The notes below the pieces were generated by a model. It ran no database searches, was not told the DNA's origin, and worked only from the letters and a program-made list of their open reading frames with translations. A stretch of 64,000 nt of DNA from Bemisia tabaci (lineage: Eukaryota > Arthropoda > Insecta > Hemiptera > Aleyrodidae): contig NC_092794.1 of the NCBI RefSeq assembly GCF_918797505.1, positions 32,478,122 to 32,542,121 of the forward strand. The letters run 5' to 3'. The position numbers and the translations under genes are program-made. Below are positions 1-54,579 of the stretch, in pieces (the first letter of the stretch is position 1; every line of letters begins with the position of its first letter).

Positions 1-512
1 GCATCACACTCTCGCGGAGGCGAAGCTTTGTGATAGCCTGAGTCAAATGAGAAATCTTTTTTCCACGTTGTTAGTATTTTGTGGACTTTCTGATCCCATG
101 TTTCTATGGAATAAGTATAAAGAAAGCCTTTCGGAGGACATAATGTATGGTCACCGAAGACTTTTTGATAGCTCTGTTCCAATATTTAGCAGATGGGTAG
201 AAAATGAGTGTCTGAAAAAATTAGAAGAAATTGTTTTATCAGTTGGAGGTCAGCCGTTGAGCAGCTACGGGTTACCATCGCCACAAAAGGGTGACGATAT
301 GGGTCTGAATCAGGAGTATTTGCGTGAAATCAGTTATGATCAGAATGAAATGCAAAAAATTGTCGCAGAGAACTTAATAAAATTAACGGATGAACAAAGA
401 TCATTATACGATGAGATACTTTTAAGCATAAATAGTTCCTCTGGAGTAACATTTTTTCTAGATGCCCCAGGTGGAACAGGTAAAACTTTTCTAATTAACG
501 TGTTGTTAGCTA

Positions 513-888
513 TAGTCTGTCCGAGATGGGAAGGTCCGTGGAAAGTCGGAATAATTAGCACTATTTTGCAGGGTGGGGGTGTCTCGACCCTCGTCAACTG
601 TCACTTATCGATGTTTCGCGCACGCCGCAGCCACCGCACAGGAGGCTATGGACCTCGGAGCGGCGGTTTTTCCCGGGATATGAACCTGGAGCCGCAAATT
701 CCTGTGCTAGGCGCCGAGCTGCGCGATGCGGCAAGCGACTCATAAGGAGTCAGCCCTCTGTGCGGTGCGCCACGACACAGGGTTGGTTCAGTGTCTTCAT
801 CTCTTACAATGGCTCGAACGCTACCCTTGTTTCTACATAGTGCAATTAATTCCGACTTTCCACGGACCTTCCCATCTCGGACAGACTA
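513..888. mobile_element. 376-bp MITE with about 50-bp TIRs, TSD TA, inside the Helitron gene
   Basis: The ends are inverted copies, starting TAGTCTGTCCGAGATGGG at 513 and ending with its complement at 888, with about 50 bp of near-perfect terminal inverted repeat. TA at 511-512 and TA at 889-890 are the presumed target-site duplication. Removing the element plus one TA rejoins the helicase reading frame in the conserved region just after Walker A. The GC-rich interior encodes nothing recognisable. The TA target suggests a Tc1/mariner-type transposase acted in trans, but no transposase is present. Confidence 0.88.
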
Positions 889-1529
889 TAAATTACGAAG
901 TGATGGCAACATCGCGTTGGCGGTCGCTTCTTCAGGTATAGCACCTACCCTCCTCCCAGGAGGGAAAACAGCGCATTCTGCTTTTAAAATACCAATTGAC
1001 CTCAATAGCACGGACACCCTAATGTGCAGTATAACGAAGAATTCAGGTAAGGCATATCTGATGAGGAAATGCTCATTTGTCGTATGGGATGAGAGTACAA
1101 TGGCACATAAAAAGTCGGTGGAGGCAGTGGATAGGTCACTCCGTGATATCATTGGTGTCGACAGTCCTTTCGGTGGAATTACAATGTTGTTTTCAGGCGA
1201 TTTTAGACAAACACTACCTGTTATTTCGCGAGGCACAAGAGCTGATGAGGTAAATGCATGTCTAAAGCGGTCTTACATTTGGCAATTTGTTCAGAAAAGG
1301 TCCCTAACAATCAACATGAGGGTACATCAGTTAGGTGAAGAGAGTGCCTCGAAACAGTTTGCTGATATGCTATTAAATATACCTATAGGTAATGGTGACA
1401 TTGGAGATGCCAATGGTATGATAGGCGTGTCAGAAACTCTTGGTGTCGCAGTTAATTCAGTCGAACACCTTATTGATGAGATTTACCCGGATATTGAATC
1501 ATCAGAAGCAAAAAATGATTCTTGGCTCT

Positions 1530-3068
1530 GGGTCATTCCACGTCAACTGTGCCAGGCTCGGAACCCGACCCCCTCCGATTTGGCTGAAAATTGATATACG
1601 GGGTCTTCACATCATTATAAGAAACTAATTTGAAGGGTTTTCCCATCCGACGCCCCGTTCGCGAGATATCGACCCTCAAAGATGGGGTGAATTTTAGCGA
1701 TATTCAAAAAAGCCCGTTTTAGCGATTCTCATTTTCTCGACTTCCCTCTCTTTGACTCTCCATAGCGAGACTCTGTATCAATCCATCATACTTTGAAAGA
1801 GTGTTTCTAGACCAATTTTTCATGTAGATTCTGAATATGCCATCAAAATTGAGCTAAAAATTATTTAAACGGCCGTAATTTAGAGTTTTTTAAAATTTAC
1901 GATTTTTTCGCCATTCAATGTTCAAACTGAATTATCTAAAAAACAGTCTCTCCGATTTTCGATTTTTTTTTTATACTTCAAGCTTAGGATATATACTTTC
2001 GGTTGATATACTTTTTTCAATTGCCATCGGACGGTTAAGGGCCTAAAAAAATTCAAATAGGCCAAAAAAGGTCAAAAATTGGTAAAAAAAGACGATTTTT
2101 TACATTTTAATCCAAATATTTCGATAATGAACACTTCAATTAACGATGTTTTCCCCCAGTTTACCCTCTAAAATGTATAAAATCAGACTATCGACGCTTT
2201 CCATACATTTACCGATCGATTAACGGCCTGATGGAAACCGGAAACCGACCGAAAATCCTCGAAATTGACGCAAAAAAAACGATTTTTCACACCGTAACCG
2301 GATGCTTTCCATAGATTGTGACTGCAATTTCCAATTTTCTCTCTCTATTTTAACCTTAAGGTATATACTTTCGAGTAATAAACACTTACTAACGTGCATC
2401 GATGGGGCACGGATTTAAACGGAAATGAAAACCGGCCGGAAATGCTCAAAAATAACGGAAAAAGGCGATTTATTGCATAGTCAGGGAAGCATGTGTTCGA
2501 AAATTACGTCCCGTTTGCACGTTTGTGATGCAAGTTTACTCCTTCATTTTGGTCCCTAGAATGAGAAAATCTTTGGTGGACTATCCGCTTTTGATGCCAA
2601 GGCCCCAAAAACAAGATGGCGGCCAAAATGGAGGCTGAAATTGAAATGTTGGTGAAACGGCACAAAACGTCAAGAGAGATGTCGATCCTCATGTTTTTTG
2701 AATCGTAGATTCCAAAAAAATTGTCATACAGACCCCTCGACCCACGGAAATGACCAAAATCCAAGATGGCGGCCGATTTTGGCTCTTTAATGGCTAAAAC
2801 GTCAAATGAGGAGGAAAGAGAGGAGTAAACACCCCAGATATCTGTTTTCGAGGTCACCGATTCCAAAAAAATAGGAGAAAAAAACATCTCATGCCAAATG
2901 GTACTGATTTTGACCATGCAAAGGCCGAACTCGGCAGTCATTCTGATTAGAGTGTTCAGAAACACTCTATAATCGGGACCTCTCGACCCACGGAAATGCA
3001 CAAAATCCAAGATGGCGGCGATTTTGGCTCCTGAATGGTTAAAACGTCAAATTCGGAGCAAAGTTCCA
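1530..3068. repeat. Left arm of the 5.05-kb foldback
   Basis: This arm pairs with 5045-6583 in inverted orientation. Its inner part (about 2540-3068) consists of degenerate units carrying the words 'aagatggcggc' and 'gacgttttagccatta', repeated at unequal spacing. The outer part (about 1530-2500) is AT-rich with words such as 'aaaatcgaaaa'. No coding function is supported. Confidence 0.9.
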
Positions 3069-3217
3069 GCAAGTGTGTTTTGAGCCACTGAATCTGAAAA
3101 TTGCGTTTATAATTCCCGACCACCCCTCAGTCTTCCAGAAAACTGACCAGGATAATGACAATTTTTCCGGGCGGAATCGACTTTTCCAGAAAATCGGCCT
3201 GTTGCAAAGTTTTGCTG

Positions 3218-3795
3218 GATCAAAAATAAGATTTGGTAGTACTATAGAAATGTCTCAAAAATCACGATGAGCGGATCGGCAAAGTCTAAAATGTACTCCT
3301 TACTTCACAATTTGCATAAGAAATTTGCGTTTTTTTAGCTTCCCGCCTCAAAAACGATACCACGGCAAAGGTGAACGTTTCGTTAGAGGAGTCATATTCC
3401 ATCCAACCCCTGCTTACAAGGATACTACGCAATATTCAACATAGCTGACGCCAATCCACCAAAATGCTTGAGATGGGACGATGATTCTAACCACTTGATA
3501 ACAATCGGCGTGTTTACACATTCACATTTTTCTCGCGTTGACAGATATCCGCCGTGATTGACCTCATGCTCTCCTCTACTTGCGCGCGGAAGCGTCTGCC
3601 ATGTTGAGGAGGGATTGAACGGAACGACTCCTCTAACGAAATGTTCACCTGTGCCGTGGTATCGTTTTTGAGGCGGGCAGCTTAAAAAAACGGAAATTTA
3701 TTACGCTAATTGTGAAGTGAGGAGTATATTTCAGACTTTGCGAAAGCGCTTATCGTGATTTTTGTGACATATTATCTATAAGGAAAAACTCCAGG
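3218..3795. repeat. Nested inverted repeat (MITE-like) in the foldback centre
   Basis: Positions about 3218-3400 are repeated in inverted, diverged form at about 3626-3795, for example 'ggtatcgtttttgaggcggg' on the right against its complement on the left. The arms differ at many positions and so are older than the outer foldback arms. No ORF or target duplication could be defined. Confidence 0.7.
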
Positions 3796-4039
3796 CCCGG
3801 CCCATTGCAGGGTGATGAGAAGGAACGGAGGAAATTTCCGCATTCAGCGCCTCATAATACGAAGGAATCACCTTATCTCGTCCGGGAGATTATTATATAG
3901 TAATTATTTGGATTTGCTGACTTCTAAACTCGACTTTCGATACTCAGCTATACCAAATTGCGCTTCATGTACTAGGCGTCATCTTGATCTTGAGCAATCA
4001 CCACTTGGTCATCAGCAAATCCGAGAAACTGACAAAGGG

Positions 4040-4700
4040 AGGTGATCAGCAAAGCACTGAGTTGGAGGATGGGCAGCAGATCAAAGGCTGCGCGCACTAT
4101 GGGTACTTGGGGGGGGGGGGGGGGGAGGGGGTGCGGTTGGCAGGATGGAAGAACGGATCAAGGGATCAAGGAAAGAAACATCCAAGCAACGAAGGCCACA
4201 GCGATGTTCAATGGAATCCTCTGGGTTCCGCGGATTTCCAAAGAGAACAAGAGAAAAATTTACAAAGTTGAAGTCAAAAGTATTCTTACATATGACAGTG
4301 AAGTTTGGCAGCTGAAGGAACGGACCCAAGGGATGCTGAGAGCTACGAAGATAGATTTCTGGAGGAGGTGGCTGTAGGAATTTTTAGGAACGATCGGGTT
4401 CGCAACGAAAGAGTGCGGCAGATCATGGGAGTCGAAAATGTCATGGTATTCGACGACATGATCAGACAGCTTGACTGGTATGGCCATGTTAATAGAATGA
4501 CGGACGAAGGACTGCCAAAGAAGATGCTTGATTGGGTATTCCTCCCGGGAGGAGACGAAGTGGATGCCCAGTGAAAGGGTAGCGACATAGGGTTTTAGAA
4601 GGAATGAGGGTAAGCAGGCCCGCCACAAGGGTGGGGATACTGGGTCCATGGTACCGGGGCCCGGGCCTTGGAGAGGCCCGTGCCGCCCATGACACACTTT
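4040..4700 (+). pseudogene. Non-LTR retrotransposon C-terminal remnant (RTE/BovB-like tail)
   Basis: Fragments in two frames resemble the region after the reverse transcriptase of many animal LINEs. A piece with YDSEVWQLKERTQ (about 4290-4330) is followed, after a frameshift near 4360, by a piece with NERVRQIMGVENV and LDWYGHVNRM (about 4405-4500). A low-similarity tail continues to about 4690. A 17-G run at 4109-4125 and stop codons show that it is dead. The family pattern (W..k...rrl, R.drirNe.ir, rL.W.GHv.RM) is known; the clade assignment is inferred. It lies inside the foldback and may have been captured by it. Confidence 0.72.
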
Positions 4701-5044
4701 TTCATATTCACATGTAACCCTTGTCTCATAAGGAAAAGTGAAAAATTTTATAAAAGGTGAATAAATTTTCTGAAACTCGCTGGGGCACTGTAGAATTCCT
4801 TTTACTGCTATAGAGGTTTGCTTCTATTTTAAAGATTTTTAGTAGATAATGATATTTTTACAACTGTGCGCTCTAAACTTTAAGATATTAAAAATTATTT
4901 TTCTGGTTGTAAGGTGACCGGGGGTGGGGTGGGGGAGGTTGGTGGCAGTCATGGGGCCGGGATCTTAAAATTGGAACTAGGGCCCGAGGTGGGATGTGGC
5001 AGACCTGAGGGTAAGTGAACTCCCTGAAAGGCTTTTCGAGGATC

Positions 5045-6583
5045 GGGAACTTTGCTCCGAATTTGACGTTTTAACCATTCAGGAGCCAAAATCGCCGCCA
5101 TCTTGGATTTTGTGCATTTCCGTGGGTCGAGAGGTCCCGATTATAGAGTGTTTCTGAACACTCTAATCAGAATGACTGCCGAGTTCGGCCTTTGCATGGT
5201 CAAAATCAGTACCATTTGGCATGAGATGTTTTTTTCTCCTATTTTTTTGGAATCGGTGACCTCGAAAACAGATATCTGGGGTGTTTACTCCTCTCTTTCC
5301 TCCTCATTTGACGTTTTAGCCATTAAAGAGCCAAAATCGGCCGCCATCTTGGATTTTGGTCATTTCCGTGGGTCGAGGGGTCTGTATGACAATTTTTTTG
5401 GAATCTACGATTCAAAAAACATGAGGATCGACATCTCTCTTGACGTTTTGTGCCGTTTCACCAACATTTCAATTTCAGCCTCCATTTTGGCCGCCATCTT
5501 GTTTTTGGGGCCTTGGCATCAAAAGCGGATAGTCCACCAAAGATTTTCTCATTCTAGGGACCAAAATGAAGGAGTAAACTTGCATCACAAACGTGCAAAC
5601 GGGACGTAATTTTCGAACACATGCTTCCCTGACTATGCAATAAATCGCCTTTTTCCGTTATTTTTGAGCATTTCCGGCCGGTTTTCATTTCCGTTTAAAT
5701 CCGTGCCCCATCGATGCACGTTAGTAAGTGTTTATTACTCGAAAGTATATACCTTAAGGTTAAAATAGAGAGAGAAAATTGGAAATTGCAGTCACAATCT
5801 ATGGAAAGCATCCGGTTACGGTGTGAAAAATCGTTTTTTTTGCGTCAATTTCGAGGATTTTCGGTCGGTTTCCGGTTTCCATCAGGCCGTTAATCGATCG
5901 GTAAATGTATGGAAAGCGTCGATAGTCTGATTTTATACATTTTAGAGGGTAAACTGGGGGAAAACATCGTTAATTGAAGTGTTCATTATCGAAATATTTG
6001 GATTAAAATGTAAAAAATCGTCTTTTTTTACCAATTTTTGACCTTTTTTGGCCTATTTGAATTTTTTTAGGCCCTTAACCGTCCGATGGCAATTGAAAAA
6101 AGTATATCAACCGAAAGTATATATCCTAAGCTTGAAGTATAAAAAAAAAATCGAAAATCGGAGAGACTGTTTTTTAGATAATTCAGTTTGAACATTGAAT
6201 GGCGAAAAAATCGTAAATTTTAAAAAACTCTAAATTACGGCCGTTTAAATAATTTTTAGCTCAATTTTGATGGCATATTCAGAATCTACATGAAAAATTG
6301 GTCTAGAAACACTCTTTCAAAGTATGATGGATTGATACAGAGTCTCGCTATGGAGAGTCAAAGAGAGGGAAGTCGAGAAAATGAGAATCGCTAAAACGGG
6401 CTTTTTTGAATATCGCTAAAATTCACCCCATCTTTGAGGGTCGATATCTCGCGAACGGGGCGTCGGATGGGAAAACCCTTCAAATTAGTTTCTTATAATG
6501 ATGTGAAGACCCCGTATATCAATTTTCAGCCAAATCGGAGGGGGTCGGGTTCCGAGCCTGGCACAGTTGACGTGGAATGACCC
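5045..6583. repeat. Right arm of the 5.05-kb foldback
   Basis: This is the inverted partner of 1530-3068. Direct internal repeats are visible: the phrase beginning 'tttgacgtttta' followed by a 'gccgccatcttgg' block occurs around 5062-5139 and 5308-5384, with a third more diverged version around 5438-5520. A truncated, more diverged copy of the outer 560 bp of this arm lies at 9399-9962. Confidence 0.9.
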
Positions 6584-7194
6584 CTCTGTGAACGAGCTAT
6601 TTTAGCACCCACAAACGAAGAAGTAATGTATATTAACAATACCATCATCCAACGTTATCACGGTCAAGAATCTGTTTACAGCTCCATTGATACCGTCTGT
6701 GAGCAGGATGATGCCGTCCATTATATCCGACTGAGTTTTTAAATTCTATTATTGCTCCTGGGCTCCCACCTCACGAACTTACGCTTAAGTTGGGTGCGCC
6801 TATCATGCTTTTAAGAAACTTAAATGCACCAAAACTTTGCAACGGAACGATGAGACTGCGTATTAAAGCTCTACATAAATATCTTATTGAGGCAATTATT
6901 TCAACAGGTTGTGGAAAAGGTGAGAGTGTACTGATTCCGCGTATTCCGCTCATTCCATCCAACTACCCATTTCAATTCAAGCGCCTTCAATTCCCTATCA
7001 CACTTTGCTACGCCATGACAATCAAGAAATCGCAAGGGCAAACATTAAGTATAGCGGGTATCAACTTACGGACCAACTGCTTCGCGCACGGGCAACTGTA
7101 TGTTGCTTGCTCTCGAGTTAAAAGCAACAAACATTTATTTGTATATTCTCCAGGTAAAATTATAAAAAATGTCGTATATAAGGAGGCTTTGTGA

Positions 7195-8057
7195 GGTAAT
7201 TTAATTGAGGTATCCAGCTGCATTTTCAACACTTTCCCACATGTTTTAATATCTTAAGGGAGGAGGGGTCCGTCAAGCGTTACGTAATTATTAAAGAAAG
7301 GTCCGGAGTCGCGTTACAAGAACAGGAGGGGGAGTCAAAATTGCCTAACAGTGCGTTACGTAATTTATGAACACTCTCTCATCAGAAACGCTAAAGCGTG
7401 GTAGAGCGCTTGTTACATTTGTAGTTTTCGTCATGAGGACGATAAATTTTAAAAGTACCTATACGAACAATAAGAACAATATACTTTGAGAGGATATGAT
7501 GGCCAAATGCATGAGATGCTTTTCTTTATTGCAACATTCGAAATTTTCTCTTTTCTTAAGTCTTAAACTCTTCTACTACTTGAGCCACCCGACGTATGAT
7601 TGTTTAAGTCTGTGGCTTTGGCGTGGTGTTGGCTGGAGTCCTGGAGGACGCCAGTGAGCTACTCCTACTGGCCAATACCGTGTGCGCGGGGCTTACTTAG
7701 TCATATTCCGGAGGGACTTTGCCTTTTTTACCTCACGATAAATCCCCCCCCCCCCCCCCAAGAAGAAAAATCCCCTAAAGGAAAATTATCCAAAATGGTC
7801 CTTGACAATTTGCGTAATTTCGTTTCTCTTCTGAAAATTTACAAAGAAGATCAATAAGAAACTGAAAACAGGTAAACTAATTTAGGGAGGAATGCCTTTC
7901 GAATTCATGCATTCATAAAATAATTCTTATTGGATTATATTATTTTATCATCATCTTGCAATCACGGCACGGAATACGGCTCGCTTGCGAGCCGTAAGTC
8001 ACTCGCGAAGCGAGTGACCGGGGGTCCAGGGGGCGGAGCGGCTAAGTTTTGTTCTTC
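7195..8057 (+). other. Helitron 3' non-coding tail with terminal hairpins
   Basis: No gene is visible after the helicase stop. At 7979-7994 'ggctcgcttgcgagcc' forms a hairpin and at about 7998-8016 'tcactcgcgaagcgagtga' forms another. A GC-rich 'gggggtccagggggcggagcggctaag' stretch follows to about 8034. Helitrons typically end in a short GC-rich hairpin followed by CTRR, and CTAA occurs at about 8042-8045, so the 3' end of the Helitron is probably here. The exact terminus cannot be fixed without a second copy. A 16-C run lies at 7744-7759. Confidence 0.5.
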
Positions 8058-8569
8058 TTAAACATTGATATGAGCTCATTGTTTAAAATGTTTTTTGTTT
8101 TTTGTTTTGTTAATATAATTTTCCTGTTTTTCATCATTTTTTAAAATGGTTTAAAAAGGGCGACTCATCTTACACCAAAATTGAACTCCTTTGGCGAACA
8201 ATGTACGTAGATGGTCAAATACTTCCTCTAAAAAAGTTTTTGGATTCAAAGCCTCCCAAAAAAGCCGATGTTGCCATATTTTATCCCCGGAAAACACAAA
8301 AAACCGAGTACCTATTTCAGTATTTGGAGGCTGTTCCTCACCGAGCTCATTGAGCAAATTTCAGCAAACCTTGAATTTTCATACGTTATGACCACATTAC
8401 TAGTGATTATGTACATGTGTTTATCTATACAGCCTCCCACCGCGGCGCGACGTTATGCCACATACCATCGATAAAATTCGATAGAAATCCGCATTTCCTT
8501 AGATTTGAGCCATTTTTTCGGACATTGCACATGGAATACTTACGTAAAACTTAAAATGCAGTATTCAGA

Positions 8570-9045
8570 GATGGAAGGGGATCATACCTTGTAGCAATAA
8601 TCATTATTTTAAGATCCTGCGCTTATTGACGACCCATTTCTTACGAATTCTAAGCATGATGTTTGTGATGTCTCCTAATCTTAGGGAGTGCAAACTCCTT
8701 GAAGGACTTTGGGAGGGTAGAGGAATTTCCACTTTGTGGTTTGAGAAAAAAATGGGGAAATTACGAGGCAGCATTCTTAGCAATCGATACCCGTCCAAAA
8801 AGACGGGGGTGGGGGGGGGGGAGGGCTAGGGTCAAGGATGGGCAAAAATTCAGCAATGAGAACCCGTGTTTTTGAAATGTGGCACTGTTTCTTTTTGGTC
8901 CTCAGATCACGGTCAATGTTTGAAAGTCGCATCCTCGTGCACAAACATCATGACTCGAAATCGTAAGAAATGGGTCGTCAATATGCGCAGGGTCTTAAAA
9001 TAATGGATATTGGCACAAGGTATGATCCCCTTCTATCTCCACGGA
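8570..9045. repeat. Inner inverted repeat
   Basis: About 8570-8660 ('ggatcataccttgtagcaa' and onwards) recurs inverted at about 8945-9045, including the shared 'gacgacccatttcttacga' block. The arms are diverged. Between them are unique AT-rich sequence and a run of 11 G at 8811-8821. No gene is supported. Confidence 0.7.
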
Positions 9046-9059
9046 AAAAACGAGTTTAG

Positions 9060-9300
9060 GGTTGGGACATGCGGGGCAGGGCCGGCCCTACACCCGGGGT
9101 AGGTAAAATTGCTTCACCTAAACATCGGAGGGGCAGGCCCATGCTGAAGTTAAGGTTCAGCCCTACCTGCCTCAGGGCCCAGTCCTACCTGAGGCGGGGC
9201 CGAGCACTAACCACATAGGGCTGGGCCCTGGAGAAGGTAGGGCTGGGTCCTGAAGAAGGTAGGGCTGGACCCTGCAATGCGGGAAGGGCCGGGCCCCATA
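9060..9300. repeat. GC-rich short tandem repeats ('ggtagggctgg')
   Basis: An unusually GC-rich patch with repeated words 'ggtagggctgggtcctgaag' and 'ggccgggcc', partly self-complementary. The composition differs sharply from the AT-rich surroundings. No function is assigned. Confidence 0.6.
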
Positions 9301-9398
9301 AAAAAGAATTCGAGGATGTTACTCTAATTGTACGAGCATATTTAGCGCGCTCTATGCACTGTTCTATGAAGTACTCACACATTGCCGGTAATTTCGTC

Positions 9399-9962
9399 TT
9401 TTTTTACCAATTTTTGACATTTTTTTGGCCTACTTGAATTTTTTTAGGCCCTTAACCGTCCGATAGCAATTGAAAAAAGTATATCAACCAAAAGTATATA
9501 TCTTAAGCTTGAAGTATAAAACAAAAAAATCGAAAATCGGAGAGACTGTATTTTGGATAATTCAGTTTGAACATTGAATGGCAAAAAAATAGTAAATTTT
9601 AAAAAAGCCTAAATTACGGCCATTTAAATAATTTTTAGCTCAATTTCGATGGCATATTCAGAATCTACATGAAAAAGTGTTCTAGAAACACTCTTTCAAA
9701 GCATGATGGATTGATAAAGAGTCTCGCTATGGAGAGTCAAAGAGAGGGAAGTAGAGAAAATGAGAATCGCTAAAACGGGCTGTTTTGAGTACCGCTAAAA
9801 TTCACCCCATCTTTGGGGGTCGATATCTCGCGAACGGGCGTCAGATGGGAAAACCCTTCAAAATTGGTTTCTTAATATGATATAAAGACCCCGTATACCA
9901 ATTTTCAGCCAAATCGGAGAGGGTCGGGTTCCGAGCTTGGTTGCGTTGACGTGGAATGACCC
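9399..9962 (+). repeat. Truncated second copy of the 5.05-kb foldback end
   Basis: This segment matches about 6020-6583, the outer part of the right arm, with scattered substitutions, and ends in the same GTTGACGTGGAATGACCC terminus at 9962. It shows that the foldback belongs to a repeated family with a defined end. Its left side is truncated. Confidence 0.88.
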
Positions 9963-10443
9963 ATATGTATTCCATGTGCAATATCCGAAAAAATGGCTCA
10001 AATCTAAGGAAACGCGGATTTCTATCGAATTTTATCGATGGTATGTGGCAACGTCGCGCCGCGGTGGGAGGCTGTATAGATAAACACATGTACATAATCA
10101 CTAGTAATGTGGTCATAACGTATGAAAATTCAAGGTTTGCTGAAATTTGCTCAATGAGCTCGGTGAGGAACAGCCTCCAAATACTGAAATAGGTACTCGG
10201 TTTTTTGTGTTTTCCGGGGATAAAATATGGCAACATCGGCTTTTTTGGGAGGCTTTGAATCCAAAAACTTTTTTAGAGGAAGTATTTGACCATCTACGTA
10301 CATTGTTCGCCAAAGGAGTTCAATTTTGGTGTAAGATGAGTCGCCCTTTTTAAACCATTTTAAAAAATGATGAAAAACAGGAAAATTATATTAACAAAAA
10401 AAACAAAAAAAAAAACATTTTAAACAATGAGCTCAATGTTTAA

Positions 10444-10958
10444 AAGCAACAAAAATTGGCCAAAGTGACCCTCTTACACCTCTAATGAACATACTTGAAG
10501 GACTTTTTACTCCTACAATGGGATCATTGTGAAACAGCGCGTCAAATGCCGCGACATTTAAGTCGAGCGACGGTCGAGCAGCGGTTTGACTACAAAATGC
10601 TAAAATCGCTGATTTTTGCATTTTGAGAGCTAAGAACGAGGGATTCTGATCCTCGTGGGTCCAAACCGTTATTTTTCTCTTAAAATATAGTATCAGAAGT
10701 CTCATTATCCGCATTTGCGACTTTTTACCTCGATTGCATTTACCGAAAAAAAATCTGCAAGATCGCCAAGATTGCCAAGATGAGAAATCGGTGAAACATC
10801 TTAAGTACCTTGCGGGACCACTCAAACTTTAGCTACGACCCTGAGATTTTTTTGTGCTTTTTTTTCTAACTATGAGACAACTTTTTGGCAGGTATCTCTG
10901 TTGGATTTCGCAATGTTTTTTTTTGTAACGTCCAAAATGGGACACCCTACTGTTCAAA
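10444..10958. other. Unannotated AT-rich sequence
   Basis: Nothing recognisable: the short ORFs on both strands show no conserved motif. The stretch links the inverted-repeat element on the left to the degenerate tandem array on the right. Confidence 0.4.
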
Positions 10959-11699: not shown

Positions 11700-13073
11700 A
11701 TCTTCCTGCTTTAGAAAGAGCGACGCTAAGAATGACACAATTTGGGCCAACGGGGATTTTTCTGAAACCGGGCCCAAACGATACCTTATGATACCCTAAA
11801 ACTATGGTGAAAATTTTAGCTTAAGTATAAGCACGGTTTTTGAGAAATGAGGGGGCAAAGTTGCCAAATCGCCATCATTCTGGACAGCATTTCTACAGCA
11901 AAAAGACGGGGAAAATGGAAGAAAAAGTTACACCTTTGATGGGTTTCGGCTGTAAATGTTCTCATTGGGCCCCCAAGCATGTAACTGCGTTCAGTTTCAA
12001 AAATTTAGGTCGCACAGTGGTCCAAAATGGGGAGAAATCGTCGACATATCAGGATTCTTTGTCAAATTTTTAGAAATGGAAGTAAAATTGTCGGTCTGCT
12101 GCAGTTTTCATGGCTAATAATGTTCTTATCGGTCCTCAATACCTACATGTAATTAAGTTCAGCTTCACAAATGTACATCGCACAGTGGTCAAAAATGGGG
12201 GAATTAGTGGACAAATTAAGATCCTTTGTCAAACTTTTTAAAAATGAAGTGATAAACTGTTGGTCCCCATTAGACTTTAGAACCCGGAAAAATTCATGTT
12301 TTTAATTTTTTTAATTATTACTACATAACAGTCCGTATTGTTTACAGAACGTTGTTATTGAATAGACTTTGTAGCATTATCTCAATAAAATATGCAAACT
12401 TTCAGAAATTTAAAAAAAAGAAGGAAAAATGGAGAGAAAAAAGTAAGGAAAGATTTAAATAGTCAAAAAAAATTGAAGAATTTTTCCAGGATCTGAAGTC
12501 TACTGGGGACCAACAGTTTCACTTCATTTTTAAAAAATTTGACAAAGGATCTTAATTTGTCCACTAATTCCCCCATTTTTGACCACTGTGCGATGTACAT
12601 TTGTGAAGCTGAACTTAATTACATGTAGGTATTGAGGACCGATAAGAACATTATTAGCCATGAAAACTGCAGCAGACCGACAATTTTACTTCCATTTCTA
12701 AAAATTTGACAATAAAGAATCCTGATATGTCGACGATTTCTCCCCATTTTGGACCACTGTGCGACCAAAATTTTTGAAACTGAACGCAGTTACATGCTTG
12801 GGGGCCCAATGAGAACATTACAGCCGAAACCCATCAAAGGTGTAACTTTTTCGTCCATTTTCCCCGTCTTTTTGCTGTAGAAATGCTGTCCAGAATGATG
12901 GCGATTTGGCAACTTTGCCCCCTCATTATTCAAAAACCGTGCGTATACTCAAGCTAAAATTTTTACCAGAGTTTTAGGGTATCATAAGGTATCGTTTGGG
13001 CCCGGTTTCAGAAAAATTCCCGCTGGCCCAAATTGTGCCAAAAAACGGTCGTTTTTGGCGTCGCTCTTGATTC
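11700..13073. repeat. Inverted-repeat element with about 600-bp arms
   Basis: About 11700-12297 and 12476-13073 are inverted copies (coordinates sum to about 24773) with small differences. Within each arm two units are repeated about 168 bp apart, anchored by 'cgcacagtggtc' at 12011 and 12179 in the left arm. The central 180 bp is AT-rich. The outer part shares words with the element at 50.7-53.0 kb ('taaaattttagctt...gtatac'). Confidence 0.85.
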
Positions 13074-23597: not shown

Positions 23598-24618
23598 CGA
23601 GGGGCGTTCAATAAGTAAGTATCCCCCCCTCTCTAAAATCGATAGGAATGGACCAATTTTAAAAAAAACTTGGGCTCAAAATCTTCCTTAGGATATACTG
23701 ATTGTGAGTTCAACAAAACAAATGGCAACAAAATCGGACCATGTGCGGCCGAACGCGAGCCGTTTGAACGCGCCGAGGTGCACGCCGCTCCCGCCGAATC
23801 CGCGGAGATTTGAAGTCCGCAACAAGAGAAGAGCTTCTCTGCCAACGCTTCAGTCGTTCATCACTGACGAAAAATCAAAGAAGTTTTTGAAGAATAAGGT
23901 GCTTACCTCACCTCTCCACATAACCAGCTCGATCCAAGCAGGCCTGAGACTGATTGTGAGACTAAGAGAACAGCTTTTGGACACCGCGCCTGTAGAAGTC
24001 TTTCAATTGGCTGGGGATGAAAGTGTTGACGGCTTGTTTGACCTCTTCCACTGATTCAAAATGAGTTCCCTTGAGTTCAGATTATAGAAAGGGGAATAAA
24101 TGGTGGTCTTTTTTGCCATTTATTACCGTATCTAGTATCTGAACGCGGGGGAGTTCATTTTGAATCAGTGGAAGAGGTCAAACAAGCCATCAACACTTTC
24201 ATCCCCAGCCAGTTGAAAATCTTCAACAGGCGCGGCATCCAAAAGCTGTTCTCTTAGTCTCACAATCAGTCTCAGGCCTGCTTGGATCGAGCTGGTTATG
24301 TGGAGAGGTGAGGTAAGCACCTTATTCTACAAAAAATTCTTTGATTTTTCGTCAGTGATGAACGACTGAAGCGTTGGCAGAGAAGCTCTTCTCTTGTTGC
24401 GGACTTCAAATCTCCGCGGATTCGGAGGGAGCGGCGTGCACCTCGGCGCGTTCAAACGGCTCGCGTTCGGCCGCACATGGTCCGATTTTGTTGCCATTTG
24501 TTTTGTTGAACTCACAATCAGTATATCCTAAGGAAGATTTTGAGCCCAAGTTTTTTAAAATTGGTCCATTCCTATCGATTTTTGAGAGGGGGGATACTTA
24601 CGTATTGAACGCCCCTCG
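23598..24618. mobile_element. Mariner-type foldback with about 480-bp arms, TSD TA
   Basis: The left end CGAGGGGCGTTCAATAAGTA (preceded by TA at 596-597 of this kilobase) and its complement at the right end (followed by TA at 24619-24620) resemble mariner TIRs. Positions pair as p and 48219-p. The inner arm, read toward its end, encodes SVEEVKQAVNTFIPSQLK followed by a GVQKL-like stretch, matching the C-terminal region of mariner transposases. The element thus carries an inverted duplication of a mariner 3' end and cannot encode a whole transposase. Confidence 0.82.
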
Positions 24619-28700: not shown

Positions 28701-31700
28701 TAAAGTTTGTTAGTATGAAAAGCCGATTTTACTGGCGTTATTCTGTGTGTGCCGTCCTTTTCCCCCCTTCTCCCGCCCATACATCTTGACAGGTTATGGA
28801 GCCCAGTCACTACAGCAGTCACTACAGTCATCGTGAGTAAGTAACTCTGCAAATAGCTGGTATCTTTGTCTTTGTTCAAGTTTGCACCGAACCGAAATTA
28901 CAAGTCACTTATCCAATGGGCTGGTTCGACTCGTCTAGTAAAGAATCCAAGGAGAACGTCAACACTCAGACTCAAACCGTGGAGCAGGAGGTTGCAGTGG
29001 ACTATCACAACTACATCTTGTACGGACTGATCATCGCACTAGTACTGGCTTATATTTTGGTTTGGTGGTGCAAATTGAACTATAGGACTCAGAGAAGGCT
29101 ACGAGCAGAGGTACAAGAACTCAAAAAGGTTACATCCACAACTCCAGGACAGCGTCTCTGAGGCAGCAGGCATCCAGAGGGAGCTTTGGGCGGTTCTAGC
29201 AGGTGGACATCTGACGTGAGGTCCAGGAGCAGAGAACGGGCGCCAAACTCAGGATAGCAGCCAAGATGGAGAACGCATTCATAAAAATCGAGAAACTTCG
29301 GGGTGAAGACAACTTTCAAATATGGAAGTTTCAGGTGACGATCTTGCTTAAGGATAAGGAAGCCTTCAGCATTGTGGAAGGGAGGCAAGCGAGATCATCA
29401 ACGAATGCAGAGGAGGCGCACCAATGGGATCTTAAGGACGTGCAGGCACAGAAGATACTCGTCCAAACTGTGGAGACGGGAATCTTGACGCACATCATGA
29501 CAGCGACAACGAGTTTCCAGATGTGGACAAAGTTGCTTGAGCTTTACGAGAGAAATACGGCACAGAGGAGATGCAACCTACTTCAGGAGTTTTATGGGTT
29601 CAGGATGACGAAAGGAAGTAAACTGGTGGATCAAATCGGAAAACTGCAGAACTTGGCGTATCAACTGGCTCAGACAGAATGCAGGATTAGCGACGACATG
29701 TTGATCTCCAAAGTGCTCGTATCTCTCCCGGAAAGTTTCAGGTACTTTGCCACGTCTTGGGAATCAACAGAAGCGAGGGAGAAGACTCTTCAGAATTTGG
29801 TGGCGAGACTCGCGGCAGAAGAATCACGAGGTGGCGTGAGGACTTCGGGCACAAAGGACGAATCTGGAACAACGGCGTTTCAGGCGACAAGGAAGGGAAA
29901 GTGTCACAACTGCGGCATCCCTGGACATTGGAAACGAGAATGTAAGAAACCACCTAAGCAGCAGAACAACAACAACAGCGGCCACAACAATGGAAGGAGT
30001 GGACCAAACAAAGGAAAAGGCGACAAGAAGAATTCAGATCAAAAATCAGGCTACCATGCAGACAAGGACGCAGCTGGCAGCATTTGCTTTCTAACAGAAA
30101 ACGCAGTGAGCGAAAATAAAAATTGCATTGAATTCTATGTCGATTCTGGTTGTTCTGATCATCTAGTGTTTCAAAAGGATTTATTTAGTGAACTAACATT
30201 ACTAAAGGAACCTATACATATTGCCATAGCAAAAGAAAATGAGTTCATTGAGGCTGTTGGTATCGGAAATATAAATGTTATGAGTGAAGTAGGGAATAAA
30301 AAAATCGATTGCTGCATAAAAAACGTTCTGCTAGTCCCAAAACTAAGGAAAAATCTCCTATCCGTAAGAAAACTGAACTTGGCGAATATAAAAGTAATTT
30401 TTGAAAATGAGGAAGTAACTCTATCCTGTGAAAATGAGATAATTGGTGTGGGATATGTGAAAAATCTTTATAAAATTCATTTCGAGGTTGTTATGAATCA
30501 AGCTCTGGTCGTAGAAGTTGACAATGAATTAGCTATGAAATGGCATAAAAGACTTGGCCATATCAGCAACACATACTTCGAGAAGCTGATTCATAACAAT
30601 CTGGTCAGTGGCTTGGAAAAGGTCCGAGTCAGCAAGGTCGCATTCTGTGAATCTTGCATAGCTAGTAAACAAACGAGATCAGTTTTCAAAACACGGAGTA
30701 AGAGTACACGAGTTTTACAAATAGTACACTCTGATGTAGGGGGGCCAATATCACCTCAGGGCATGAACGGCGAAAAATATTTCGTGATTTTTGTTGATGA
30801 TTACTCGAATTTTGTTTGGGTATATGTAATCAAAAACAAGAGCGAAGTATTTGGTTGCTTCAAAGAATTCTCACAAATGGCTCAGGCCAAGTTTGAAAAG
30901 AAAATTTCTGTGCTCAGGTGTGATAACGGCCGAGAATATATTTCAAATGAATTTAAAATTTATTGTAAAGAAAACGGGACTACGGTCGATTATGCTATTC
31001 CGTATTCACAAGAACAAAATGGTAAAGCAGAGCGTTTTATGCGAACAATTGTAGAGAAAGCTAGGGCAATGTTGATTGATTCTAATATGCCCAAGAAATT
31101 TTGGCCAGCAGCAGTTTTAAGTTCAGCTTATTTAATAAATAGAAGTCCGACGGTAAACTTCAATGACATGACACCTGCGGAAGTATGGTATGGTAAAAAA
31201 CCTGACGTAAGCAATCTGAGAATTTTCGGTTCGATTGCATACCGCCATATTCCGAAGGAGTTGCGTAAGAAGTTAGACTCGAAGACCGAGAAATGCATTA
31301 TGATAGGGTATTGCAACAATGGGTATAGACTATGGAGTCCAGAAAAAGGAAAAGTGGTTGTTTCAAGAGATGTAATTTTCAATGAAAATGAGTTGTATTT
31401 TGGGAATCATGCTGTTTTACCGGACTTTGAAGAACATTTCCAGTTAAAAGAAAAAGATAATAAAGAGAATACATTTACTAAAGAAAATGAGATCAGTGAA
31501 ACTGAAAGTGATTCTTCAAGTGAATCAAGTGAGGAAAGTGATTCTCAATTCAATAGCTCAAAAGAAGAACCTGATTCCGATTTCGAAACTCCCGAAAAAG
31601 AGATAAACCCAGGGGTTTTACCCAAACGTGAGGTAAAATTACCAGCACATCTTAAAGATTTTGTACTCTATTCTGCATACAATGCCATTGCTTTAGTCGA

Positions 31701-34700
31701 TGATATTCCAAGAAATTTTTCTGAGTTGGATTCTAGAGAGGACAAGAAAGAATGGTATCAGGCAGTGAATCGGGAGTTAGAATCAATTAACAAAAAGAAA
31801 GTATGGACTGAGGTGCCAAAACCCAGTAATGCCGAGATCATTGATACAAAATGGGTCTTTACATACAAACCTCATGCAGATGAAAAATACAAAAGTCGTT
31901 TAGCAGTAGCTCGGGATTTTGCTCAGAAAGACAGTTTTTGCTATGAAGAAATATATTCTCCTGTTGCTAGAATGGCTACCATTCGAACCCTTTTAGCCGT
32001 AGGAAACCAGTATGGTTATGAATTTGCTCAATTAGATGTAAAAACTGCCTTCCTGAACGGAAAATTGAATGAAAATGTGTACGTTTATCTCCCTAAAGGT
32101 GTAAAATGTAAGAGTGGATTTGTATTAAAATTGAATAAGGCATTATATGGGCTAAGGCAATCAGCAAAGGTCTGGAATTCAGAGTTCAATGAGTTTTTAA
32201 TGAAACTGGGTTTTATCCAATCTGAAAACGATTTCTGTTTATACACAAAAGAATGTGGGGAAGGATTAATTTTTATTTTGATTTTTGTTGATGACATAAT
32301 TATAAGTGCTTCTCGTCATGAACTAATTGAAAGATATAAATCTGAGCTAATCAAGAAATTTGATATTGTAGATTTAGGAACATTGAAACATTTTCTCGGA
32401 TTAGAAATCGAGATTGATCCTGAACAGCAAAAAATCAAATTGAGTCAAAAAGAGTATATCTTAAAGGTGTTGGAAAAATATAATATGTTGGAATGTAAAC
32501 CAATTTCTACTCCAATAGATGCACAATTGAAACTAGATTTATCAGCTCAACCAAAATCCAATGTTATTGTAAAAGAGGTGAGGGAAATGGTAGGATGTAT
32601 TATGTATTTAATGTTGGGAACACGCCCAGATTTAAGTTTTGCCATAAATTATTTCAGTAGATTTCAAGGTAAAGCTACGCATGAACTTTTGATCTATTTA
32701 AAACGAGTTCTGAGATATTTAAATGAAACAATGAACCTGGAATTAATTTATCAAAATCATAGTACAGACCAGGTGCTTGATTGCTTCGTGGACCCTGACT
32801 GGGGGGGAGATATAAGTGACAGAAAATCTGTTTCAGGATACCTATTTCAAGTATTTGGGAACACAGTGTCTTGGAGTACGAGAAAACAAAATTGTGTTGC
32901 CCTATCGAGTACTGAGGCTGAATTAATATCCCTTTGCAGTTCGATCCAGGAAGGGATTTGGTTGGAAAAACTGTTGGCAGATTTTCAAATCAGAGTCAAC
33001 TCAGTCAGAGTGCATGAAGACAATCAAGGGTGTATAAATATTATTAAGAACCCTTCAAATAATAAACGAGTCAAACATATGGACATAAAATATAACTATA
33101 TTTCAGATTTATGGAAGAAAGGAAGAATTTCTCTTGAGTACGTTGAGAGTAAAAAACAGTTAGCTGATATTTTAACCAAAGGCCTACCCAGGGTACATTT
33201 TTGTTTTTTGAGAGAGAAACTAGGCTTAGTATAATCAAAGCGTAAACATTAAGTGGGGGTGTCATGAAATATGGCAACAACTGATAAGTGTTGAACGACC
33301 TTTCTATGTTTAATGTTTACTCTTCAATATTGACGAATGCACCTCGCCTGCGAGCGTTGACCGAGGACAATTACCTGTATATAAGTATCTGTTTTGTGAA
33401 TAAAGTTTGTTAGTATGAAAAGCCGATTTTACTGGCGTTATTCTGTGTGTGCCGTCCTTTTCCCCCCTTCTCCCGCCCATACATCTTGACAATTTGTAAG
33501 AGGTTTGGTGAAAAATCTCAATAAGGTTAATGTGCTTGACCAAAAACATAAACCAACAACTGGATTTGCTTCCTGATTTATGGCTGTGCCAACAGTTTAT
33601 GCAGAGAATGCATGTTTGACAAGCTGACAACCTGACACTTTCAATCATACGAGTAGGTATACTGGATGTCTTTTTGTTTGAAGTCACCTAAATTTCTAGG
33701 GAGCAATTTGAGATAACTCCATGAGACTCGCACCCATGCGACTAAAAAAAAAATCGCGACTATTTAGGTGGAATCTCAGCCCCCTGGAAATGAGAATCCT
33801 CATCTTTTGACACCTTTGAAAAACAAGATGGAAGGAAACATTTATAGCCCAAATTTCAGATCATTAGACTTGGGCCAATTCTGTCATCACTTACTTTCAA
33901 AAATTGTGTTACTGATTTTGCATAATTGAGGTTTTAGTTCAATGATGTGAAAAAAGATCAATGGATATTAAAAGTCACCAATTCTCAGCTCAATTTTTAC
34001 CTGCCAAAAAAGTTAGCTTCTTTGATATCTGTTGCTGTGTTGCAATGACCCAGGTATCTTTTCTCGTAGTCAAAGGCTTTTTGTCGCCATTCCCATTCTT
34101 GCTGAGAGCAAAGGCCGTACCAGTTTGGAACTTTGTTGTTTTTGTTAGGGTCATCTACAATAAAAAACAGGAGAAAAGAAAAAAGAACAGTGTCAGTCTT
34201 CCAGGATCTCAATGAAGTGTGTGATAAAATTAAGACAATGAACTTCCAGCAGAATTTTACATTTGAAAGTGATTTAATTTTTTGCTACAGTTAATACTAA
34301 AAAAAAACTGCTTACAGGAATTGCGGTTAAATAGTTACCCTTGCCAGGAACTTGTGGCACAAAACAGTCAATGACATGAATTGATTTAAGTCAATTGCAT
34401 CAATGGGTTAGTTGCGTGACATTTTTCAATTCAATTTTTAAAGTTTGAGGTCTACTGAGAATTAACATATTTTTTAAAAAGTTTTCTGGTCACTGGGACT
34501 TCGAGAAAGAGCTCCCCAAAGTCAAAAGCGATTTGAAACGGGTCTTTTCCCGCGCTTTGGAAATAGGACACCGGGACGTCACATGGTATACACACAGCAG
34601 CCTGATTGTTGAAATTTTGTGTTTGTCAGGTTGATATAGATGACATAGGTTAGAAGGCGGAGCGTGATTGGTCGGCTATGTCTTATCGCTGCTTTATCGT

Positions 34701-37700
34701 GCCTTCGTTAGGTGGAATGGACAACATACTGTTGGAAACTTAAGAGGTGCCACTAGCTTGTCCTGAGTTCAACCCGACATGGGCAAAGCAGCGATAAGAC
34801 AGCCGATCAATCACGCTCCGCCTTTTAACCTATGTCATCTACGTCAACCCGACAAACCACACAAAATTTCAACAGTCAGGCTGCAGATTCACCCTGTGTC
34901 AAATACATGTAAATACGGTCGTTTTATAAATTCGCGAAAAAATGATTTTTCTGTCTAGACTTGATTTCTTAGCGTCGCTGAAATGCGCTGATGTGCATTA
35001 AATGGATTCAGAATTTGAATAATTTTAAAACAATTTTGAAGGCTCTCCATCATGATTTCTTGGTGAAAAAGGGAGTTGAAATAGAGCTGTTCGCGTATCT
35101 TCTGCCGCCTCCGCATGCCATGCGGTAAATCGGATTCGGATCAGCCCGGACTGCATTGGCAGTGTCCGTGCGTCGGGGCCAATCAGAGCTCGAGTTGGCA
35201 TCACTTGGAGCGGGTGACCAAAAATCACAACACCATAACATAACCTCGGTGGCTTGTTGTTATCACTTCCCTAATCACAACTTATGCTGTGTTTGAGTCC
35301 GTACCCCCCCCCCCCCCTTGTAACTTTTGAACGGTTAGAGATAGAAAAACGAAACTTTGGGAATGTTTCCATCTTAAAGGGGTCCATCTTCTAAAGGGGT
35401 CAAAATTTTTGTCCCCCCCCTCAGGGGGGAGGCACGGGGGCCCCCAACTTTTTTTTTTCAAATGGTAACCCCTATCTTGTGATACATCATTAGAAAGAAC
35501 ATAAAAAACTTAGAATTTTGGCTTAAATCGAAAATCAATATCTTAATTTTTTACCGAGTTATGATAGGTCAAAGGTCAAATTTGACCTATTTTCAAAAAA
35601 CCATATCTCCGGTTCAAATCATCGTAAAGAAAAAAATAAAACGGAAAAATTTACCAAATTGTAAGCACTTTCAAGTAAAAATCACAGAAATTACTTCAAA
35701 CTAATTTTAAGGGGGGTTTCGGACCCCCAAATACGTCATTTTAAAGGTCATACGATATTCTCGCGAAATGAGCCAATTTCCCCTACTTTTCCTCAACATT
35801 ATCTTAGTAAGTTCAAAATTAGTTCAACATTGCGTTTTCAAGTCCCCAAATTTCGAACAAAGTTTTAAAAAAAATGAAATTTAAATGGTTGAATTGAATC
35901 ACCTTAAATTTCGTTTTTTGAACTTTGCTCGAAATTTGGGGACTTGAAAACGCAATGTTGAACTAATTTTGAACTTACTAAGATAATGTTGAGGAAATGT
36001 AGGGGGAAATTGGCTCATTTCGCGAGAATATCGTATGACCTTTAAAATGACGTATTTGAGGGTCCGAAACCCCCCTTAAAATTAGTTTGAATTAATTTCT
36101 GTGATTTTTACATGAAAGTGCTTACAATTTGGTAAATTTTTCCGTTTTATTTTTTTCTTTACGATGATTTGAACTGGAGATATGATTTTTTGAAAATAGG
36201 TCAAATTTGACCTTTGACCTATCATAACTCGGTAAAAATTAAGATATTGATTTGCGGTTTGCGCCAAAATTCTAAGTTTTTTATGTTCTTTCTAATGATG
36301 TATCACAAGATAGGGGTTATCATTTGAAAAAAAAAAGTTGGGGGCCCCCGTGCCCCCCCCTGAGGGGGGGACAAAAATTTTGACCCCTTTAGAAGATGGA
36401 CCCCTTTAAGATGGAAACATTCCCAAAGTTTCGTTTTTCTATCTCTAACCGTTCAAAAGTTACGAGGGGGGGGGGGTTACAGACTTTTGGGACACCCTGT
36501 ATACATGCCATTCATTTTCTGTCGTATATATTTCACTAAAAACACGACCTGGGGAAAGAGGGCTAAAATTACAAATGAAAAATTCGAGACGTTTCGCCTA
36601 AAATCTCAGGCATTTTCAATCAATAAAATAAAGGTTAAAACATAAAATTACCGTTGTCCCTTAGACCGTAGTAGCGAGGCACTGGCTGGTGATTATGTAA
36701 TCTCGGAACCGGTAAACAGACTAAGAGATAAATGGAAGGATCTCTCTTCATGCACACACTAGTTGGACCTCTGTGGCTGGAAAAACTGATGGTAGGCAAC
36801 ACCAAGTTTTTCAACATCAGTTCGGTAGTTACTAGTTGTACCTCTGTTTTTAATCATTTCAAATAAAGTTCTGGCGTTGTCATTGGATTCACTACCCAAA
36901 ACTTTGGTGTTTGCACAATCAAAAGCATGACCATTGTTATTTTCATGCTGATGAAGCGCCATAACCTCTTTTTTTATCATATTTGTGACCATTAAGTCTT
37001 TTGGACAGTTGCTGTTTTGTTTGGCCAATTCAAACAATCTATTCAATAAACGACACAAGAGAGTTGTTAGGTGAGCCTTTTCTATTTTAAAGGGAATCAA
37101 AGGAACGAAAGATTGTTGCAGTTGGTGTTCACTACAGTAAAATTAAATTTCCGCAGCATGGATGAGATGTTCTGAGAGGCAAGCGTACATAAGGTAAACA
37201 TATGACTTTCGATGGATCGATGGCTGGTTTTTTGTGGGAATTTGTACCATCATCGGCCAACTTTACGGTCTAATGACTGCGTCAAAAGTTTTATCAATAA
37301 TTTGAGAGGGATAGCAGTTTTGTAAAAGTAATAATTTCTTTTTTTCACAGCCTCTGATCATAAACTTTTGTCAAGTACCCCAATTCCGCGTCTATGCAAC
37401 CATCTAGTTTTGAGAAAAATGTGGTATTGAATTTGGCACGTCGAGTAGTCGAGATAACTGACAAAAGAGGTTGTTCCAAAAACGCCGATTTTGCCCCCCC
37501 CCTGGATTTGGCCCAAACTTTGCTCAGACGTTGTACTAAGTGTCCCCGATGCTTGGGCAAAATTTCAGCCCCCTCGGATAATTAGGGGGGAGGGGGCAGG
37601 GGGGCAAAGTTGCAATTTTTTTAAAACTTTAAAAATCGATATCTCCCGAACGGTTTGAGTGTAAGTGTTGCGGTTTGCGCTAAAAAACGTCAAAAAATAT

Positions 37701-54434: not shown

Positions 54435-54579
54435 TTATAAGTAAAATTTACGCGTTGTTCAGTTTTCGATCGCGAGTTTGTTTTTTCGTTCCGTCGCCGT
54501 ATCATGTCCGTGAGTCTACACCTCGTGCCGCGTACCGGTCCTGAAGCAGATTTCTTCAGAAAATACTGAAAAATCTTCT

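What the first reader, a model, noticed from the sequence alone, without database searches (positions are those of the whole stretch)
1530..6583. Five-kilobase foldback with 1.54-kb arms and a clean 4-bp target duplication
The sequence shows a defined terminus (GGGTCATTCCACGTCAAC), near-identical arms, a CTCT duplication and exact restoration of the Helitron helicase frame on removal. That combination makes this a bona fide recent insertion rather than an assembly artefact. It has no recognisable transposase, unusually long arms, and arms built partly of degenerate repeats. I cannot match the terminus plus 4-bp target to a superfamily with confidence, so it may represent an undescribed foldback family.
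Basis: partly seen in the sequence, partly recalled or inferred. Interest (0 to 1): 0.78.

Follow-up and report, generated by a model that had tools for sequence, protein, structure and literature searches.

The report
Foldback jumping gene with self-copied arms
This is a recent insertion of a transposase-less, hairpin-shaped DNA transposon whose gene-carrying relatives sit in the same genome, and its two arms appear to be kept identical because one arm is copied from the other.

Summary
The foldback is real: 1538-nt arms, 100% complementary, flanked by CTCT; removing it restores the Pif1-like helicase frame at the site. The 18-bp terminus occurs 211 times exactly in the 610-Mb genome (reversed control 0). 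Of 37 two-ended copies examined, 31 have a perfect 4-bp target duplication (chance about 0.5%). Coding partners exist: two near-identical elements with the same terminus, about 945-bp arms and 4-bp duplications carry a transposase-like gene, one open for 646 aa; an element with a 38% identical protein shares the first 11 end bases. The focal element is thus a non-autonomous derivative. Arms evolve in concert: 38 mismatches in 27,013 positions within 21 elements against a 6.3% median between them; 36 of 37 carry the same subterminal hexamer at both ends. L059 keeps a probable fossil of the copying: 290 bp of left flank, inverted, between the right arm and a stub of the right end. Superfamily unnamed: no Pfam model passes; Sola2 is a recalled candidate.

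The parts
1526..1529 (.). left target-site duplication CTCT
1530..3067 (+). left arm, 1538 nt
1530..1547 (+). terminus GGGTCATTCCACGTCAAC; 211 exact copies in the genome
1913..2478 (+). three degenerate direct units of about 187-189 bp in the left arm (58-61% identity)
2731..3063 (+). two 88-nt units 246 apart (89%) holding AAGATGGCGGC
3068..5045 (.). loop; parts shared with other family members, no Pfam family found in ten frames tested (nine from the loop and arms without any or with only sub-threshold matches)
3250..3770 (.). inverted-repeat element inside the loop, arms 85.5% alike
5046..6583 (-). right arm, 1538 nt, exact reverse complement of the left arm
6584..6587 (.). right target-site duplication CTCT
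746..1529 (+). interrupted Pif1-like helicase, upstream part (open frame from 746)
   Evidence: Pfam PIF1 E 1.7e-52
6588..7194 (+). interrupted helicase, downstream part; frame changes within it
   Evidence: Pfam Pif1_2B_dom E 4.4e-17
9394..9962 (-). second, one-ended copy of the arm end, 93% over 570 bp, stopping exactly at GGGTC; it lies inside another foldback (F, 8040-10461)

Best explanation
A non-autonomous foldback DNA transposon inserted into a Pif1-like helicase gene. Shown: ends, 4-bp target duplications, many copies, and gene-carrying elements with the same ends in the same genome. Inferred: the protein encoded by L087-type elements is the transposase; it recognises GGGTCATTCCACGTCAAC at both ends and inserts the element at 4-bp staggered cuts (weak W-N-N-W preference). 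Long arms are not special to the focal copy: coding copies already have arms of about 945 bp, and arm length shifts when inner DNA beside one arm is copied onto the other side or lost. Arms stay identical because one arm is rewritten from the other by templated repair (gene conversion or break-induced copying between the inverted arms), probably around excision or gap repair.
For: Terminus occurs 211 times with control 0. Perfect 4-bp duplications: 15 of 15 first-batch two-ended copies (L059 counted at its outer end), 13 of 19 second-batch, 2 of 2 coding elements and the focal one: 31 of 37. Coding copies L087 (5648 bp, AGCT, 646-aa frame) and L088 (5333 bp, TTAA, broken frame), which are about 99% alike, share the terminus and 93.6% of the focal arm over about 948 bp; L070 (12,018 bp, CAGT) has the gene in pieces. 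L089: protein 38% identical over 621 aa, ends GGGTCATTCCATGTCAAC and GGGTCATTCCATACCAAA. Concerted arms: 38 mismatches (gaps apart) in 27,013 positions within 21 elements, against mean 7.1% and median 6.3% over 210 between-element pairs; both arms of each of 13 elements fall in one clade; same hexamer at both ends in 36 of 37, shuffles mean 12.6, maximum 23. L059: arm plus 290 bp of flank copied, 2 mismatches and 1 gap in 1581 columns, then a 56-57-bp stub and the TGAA duplication. Arm length: L056 arm 946-1224 matches at 88.6% DNA beside only one arm of L087 and L088, and the first 47 bp of the focal extension match DNA beside the other arm.
Against: No transposition or binding was measured. 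The protein has only sub-threshold Pfam matches (best E 0.052, among them two helix-turn-helix models), none in NCBIfam (core only) and only weak PDB matches (E 0.01 for the core to a tetratricopeptide protein, 0.24 for the whole), so its catalytic nature is inferred from conserved motifs. Six of 37 copies lack a perfect duplication (L069, L072, L076, L082, L084, L085), and L089 has ACTT/ACGT. L070, also coding, has the L056-type extension on both sides, so arm loss in L087/L088 is as possible as arm growth elsewhere. Eight of the 29 elements with a duplication have arms under 800 bp and were left out of the 21; they are 94.97-99.75% alike, so copying is not continuous. L059 is the only overshoot case I found. 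Arm identity could be partly inflated by assembly or polishing.
Confidence: 0.87

Rival explanations
1. Assembly artefact: a fold-back chimeric read produced the inverted arms.
For: Arms are 100% identical over 1538 nt; inverted-repeat artefacts of long reads are known (recalled).
Against: Arms end exactly at the terminus found 211 times, the flanks carry a 4-bp duplication and the host frame is restored; 31 of 37 copies show the same pattern.
Confidence: 0.03
2. Arms are identical only because each insertion is young; no arm-to-arm copying takes place.
For: Copies with more diverged arms exist (95.0-97.4%: L060, L075, L079, L080, L083), so arms do decay after insertion.
Against: Without copying, the two arms of one lineage should differ about as much as lineages differ from each other (median 6.3%); they differ by 0.14% in 21 elements and share the same hexamer variant in 36 of 37.
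Confidence: 0.1
3. The transposase-like gene is cargo captured by the family, and the true transposase is encoded elsewhere.
For: The gene has no recognised domain, and loops do carry other fragments, such as an SGNH-hydrolase-like frame (recalled motif; L054 and L070).
Against: A 38%-identical protein occurs in another element whose two ends share the first 11 bases; cargo would not be expected to keep the ends.
Confidence: 0.1
4. Mutator-type foldback, as for most described foldbacks.
For: Same architecture as Tetris and Tm1; PMC10045372 gives 4-10 bp duplications for the Mutator/IS256 group (passage), so 4 bp alone does not exclude it.
Against: The described foldbacks of that group have 8-10 bp duplications; no MULE domain match in the 646-aa frame.
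Confidence: 0.05

Closest known systems
Tetris of Drosophila virilis (PMC4079207; abstract and three sections read: Characterization, Tetris Is a Foldback TE, Origin of TIR-220)
   Same: Long terminal arms up to 1735 bp built partly of about 220-bp tandem repeats, variable middle, no transposase in known copies
   Different: 8-10-bp target duplications there, 4 bp here; coding partner found here, not found there
Galileo, P superfamily (PMC4168063; passages seen)
   Same: Foldback arms; arm growth by internal repeats and by recruitment of inner non-arm sequence
   Different: 7-8-bp duplications with GTATTAC consensus, P-type transposase
Tm1 of root-knot nematodes (PMC3169594; abstract and part 1 of 2 of the Discussion read)
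   Same: Foldback family with non-autonomous and transposase-carrying forms
   Different: 9-bp duplications, Mutator/Phantom transposase, about 14-bp arm motifs
Sola2 transposons (PMC3627910; passages seen, amoebozoan examples)
   Same: 4-bp, AT-leaning target duplications; large single transposase (888 aa in one family)
   Different: Terminal repeats there are 12-21 bp; transposase and terminal sequence could not be compared, so membership is open

Membership tests
Foldback element (architectural class) | Long terminal inverted repeats occupying much of the element | tested here: met
   3076 of 5054 bp are arms
Foldback element (architectural class) | Arms containing internal direct repeats | tested here: met
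TIR DNA transposon (class II) | Fixed-length target duplication at defined ends in many copies | tested here: met
   31 of 37 perfect 4-bp duplications
TIR DNA transposon (class II) | Transposase-coding copies with the same ends | tested here: inconclusive
   L087, L088 and L070 carry a conserved gene between the ends; that it encodes a transposase is inferred
Mutator (MULE) | MULE transposase domain | tested here: not met
   No MULE match in the 646-aa frame
Mutator (MULE) | Duplication of 8-10 bp (4-10 bp in the wider IS256/MuDR group) | tested here: inconclusive
   4 bp; ranges
P superfamily / Galileo | 7-8-bp duplications and P-type transposase | tested here: not met
   4-bp duplications; no P-type Pfam match
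piggyBac (also Kolobok and Sola3, recalled) | TTAA target | tested here: not met
   Duplications vary; TTAA for piggyBac
IS481EU (also Ginger, recalled) | TG..CA ends | tested here: not met
   Ends are GGG..CCC; IS481EU ends
Sola2 | 4-bp, AT-rich duplication | tested here: inconclusive
   4 bp met; A/T at positions 1-4 is 83, 66, 55 and 93% in 29 duplications
Sola2 | Sola2 transposase sequence and terminal sequence | not testable with these tools
   No Sola2 reference sequence at hand; the DOI I tried for the founding paper is not held

The most novel reading that the evidence does not exclude
Foldback transposons renew themselves by copying one arm over the other, and when the copying overshoots the terminus it turns flanking DNA into new outer arm. 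L059 would be the first stage (290 bp of flank now inverted on the other side). The foldback F in this window (8040-10461) and L076, where a 1449-bp GGGTC-ended element sits at the centre of the same F palindrome (whole 2049-bp stretch 97% palindromic, flanks 99% like the window's F arm), would be later products: new foldback families born from old ones, which might explain why ten foldback structures span a third of this 64-kb window.
Probability: 0.3. Interest if true: 0.78.

Novelty: new variant of a known kind. Interest (0 to 1): 0.55.

Why it matters
Many foldback elements have no known transposase, and how their arms arise and stay identical is open. Here a probable coding partner, the target duplication, shifts in arm length and a probable fossil of arm-to-arm copying occur in one genome, so the question becomes directly testable, in a transposon group with 4-bp duplications and no matching Pfam transposase rather than in the Mutator or P groups of the foldbacks I read about.

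Tried and rejected
Terminus scans of IMG/VR (31 stretches) and GTDB contigs (7): no similarity to the element's ends beyond 20 bases, taken as chance. A subterminal 19-mer in IMG/VR: 0. The protein in IMG/VR: no relative. Arm in phages: no match. Paper search for an 11-base piece of the terminus: 38 papers, 20 listed, none opened, titles of gene-expression type; an 8-base piece: 4 papers, two opened at the passage, unrelated. Searches for Sola terminal sequences, with passages seen in four papers, gave none.

Arm reading frame of 180 aa (5067-5609): three database proteins (P0121 95% identity over 92%, P0122 56% over 56%, P0123 85% over 30%), on contigs of 1.0-1.6 kb; P0123 is open where the arm frame has stops, so I read the arm as non-coding and the hits as other copies. 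Ten frames of loop and arm: only sub-threshold Pfam matches; one loop frame has two short relatives on ENA contigs. Rfam: nothing. I first took the loop for freshly captured DNA; dropped, because loops are shared within subfamilies. I first read the long arms as growth from the coding copies only; weakened, because L070 has the extension on both sides. An ungapped check of the L059 flank gave 167 of 290 because of a one-base gap; the gapped alignment gives 2 mismatches and 1 gap in 1581. The joined-flank (empty-site) search and a degenerate-terminus search did not complete. I sent no structure prediction, because the stated rule does not list loci of whole-genome calls.
Full report
Observation. 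The inverted arms, terminus, CTCT duplication and frame restoration are as described. The third terminus in the window (9945-9962) belongs to a truncated arm copy, 93% identical over 570 bp, that stops exactly at GGGTC, which already makes the boundary a real element end.

The genome. The window lies in an assembly of 609,955,014 bp in 151 contigs. A query of the first 371 arm bases gave 376 candidates, of which only the best 40 were scored; the places listed are 96-100% identical apart from one 56-bp stub at 89%. The exact 18-bp terminus occurs 108 times forward and 103 times reverse, with 0 for the reversed control; only the first 100 places, on contigs C1 and C2, are listed.

Copies. I fetched 13 close plus/minus pairs and 7 single ends; five other ends of that list were not fetched. 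All 13 pairs, and two of the singles (L060, L064), show both ends and a perfect 4-bp duplication, 15 of 15 (in L059 it is found at the outer of two right ends; two ends carry one mismatch in the terminus). Five singles (L061, L062, L063, L065, L066) show no second end in the stretch held. From the listed termini I took 19 further pairs: 13 of 19 have perfect duplications; L069, L072, L076, L082, L084 and L085 do not. With the two coding copies and the focal one this is 31 of 37. In 29 of these duplications, positions 1 and 4 are A or T in 83% and 93%. These samples lean towards copies close to the focal arm and to two contigs.

Coding partner. L070 (12,018 bp, CAGT) holds a gene in pieces on its minus strand. 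Its core, searched in the genome, gave 49 matches; two are 95% identical, one with an open frame of 646 aa. Both lie between exact termini with 4-bp duplications and arms of about 945 bp: L087 2647-8294 (AGCT) and L088 1913-7245 (TTAA). The L088 frame is broken, and the two elements are about 99% alike, so they are not independent lines of evidence. A more distant copy, L089, has an 846-aa frame, 38% identical over 621 aa, in an element whose ends begin GGGTCATTCCAT; its flanks ACTT/ACGT are not a perfect duplication. The Repbase rule quoted in PMC4455052 asks for the same duplication length and agreement in the first 11 positions (passage); focal and L089 ends agree in those 11, but the duplication of L089 is imperfect. 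No Pfam model passes its cut-off. Conserved stretches between L087 and L089 include DF.ENY, YFSDG and ATSHGK..CDGVGGTVKRLA; reading them as a DDE-type core is my inference, and the resemblance to Sola2 is recalled and untested.

Arms. Of 29 elements with a duplication, 21 have arms of 800 bp or more: 38 mismatches in 27,013 positions (99.2-100%); the other eight, with shorter arms, are 95.0-99.8% alike. Between the 21, the first 800 bp differ by 7.1% on average, median 6.3%, over 210 pairs; 15 pairs differ by under 1% and 22 by over 10%, the largest ones involving L086. A first set of 16 elements gave 4.4%. On the tree of 29 arm rows, both arms of each of 13 elements fall in one clade, alone or with near-identical elements, and no split by side appears; 8 of 17 inner branches are strongly supported and 6 are open. 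Just inside the terminus, five hexamer variants occur, and 36 of 37 elements carry the same one at both ends (10,000 shuffles: mean 12.6, maximum 23; the exception is L085). If arms evolved independently, the two arms of one element should be about as different as separate lineages. They are not; so one arm is rewritten from the other. Copies with diverged arms (L060 97.4%, L079 96.1%, L083 95.7%, L075 95.0%, L080 96.5%) show that this does not go on for ever at one site.

L059. Here the right arm is followed by an inverted copy of the left flank (locus 4943-5232, aligned with 11-300; with the arm, 2 mismatches and 1 gap in 1581 columns), then a 56-57-bp stub of the right end (to 5288), then TGAA matching the left TGAA. 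The simplest reading is a break near the right end, repair by copying the left arm and on into its flank, and rejoining to the stub. The order of steps is inferred. None of the other 14 first-batch copies shows this; L057 has a 41-bp inverted match farther out in its flanks. Second-batch flanks were not scanned for it as a set.

Arm length. The outer part of the L056 extension (946-1224) matches, at 88.6%, DNA that in L087 and L088 lies beside one arm only; weaker matches (76-79%) fall on the degenerate units inside the arms. The first 47 bp of the focal extension (949-995) match DNA beside the other arm. L070, also coding, has the L056-type extension on both sides at 93.6%, so gain by copying and loss by deletion are both possible. 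Focal 996-1538 has no match in these three coding copies, so its source is unknown.

Context. Ten long inverted-repeat structures that I picked span 21,333 bp, 33% of the window. Arms of four others also hold degenerate direct repeats. In an automatic test of 16 inverted-repeat pairs only the focal one had a 4-bp duplication exactly at its arm ends; the test also gave chance matches inside arms. The F foldback (8040-10461) and L076 both hold a piece of the focal family at their centre; the 2049-bp L076 stretch is 97% palindromic and its flanks match the window's F arm at 99%.

Noticed in passing
window 8040-10461; L076: Another foldback (F) has a truncated arm of the focal family at the inner end of its right arm; in L076 a 1449-bp GGGTC-ended element lies at the centre of the same F palindrome.
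   Followed up: partly
window 39490-41968, 46462-49283, 37262-39154, 23663-24556, 35307-36476, 11733-13040, 50746-53011: Further long foldbacks, several with near-identical arms; four have degenerate direct repeats in the arms; arms of 11733 and 50746 are 72% alike, the others show no mutual similarity at the threshold used.
   Followed up: partly
window 511-890: A 380-bp inverted-repeat insert (54-nt ends, 94%) in the same helicase gene.
   Followed up: no
window 29215-33234 and 54514-58848: Two Copia-type frames (1339 and 1444 aa) with flanking direct repeats 99.6% and 99.1% identical, apparently young LTR elements.
   Followed up: no
L072 position 301: Two family members abut head to head (GACC next to GGGTC), with a 300-bp exact direct repeat in the stretch.
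   Followed up: no
window 2613, 2763, 3009 and mirror sites: AAGATGGCGGC recurs three times per arm; it resembles a YY1-type site (recalled), function untested.
   Followed up: no
L054, L070 loops: Frames reading GGSQTV...AGTNDF, like an SGNH hydrolase (recalled), shared by two elements.
   Followed up: no
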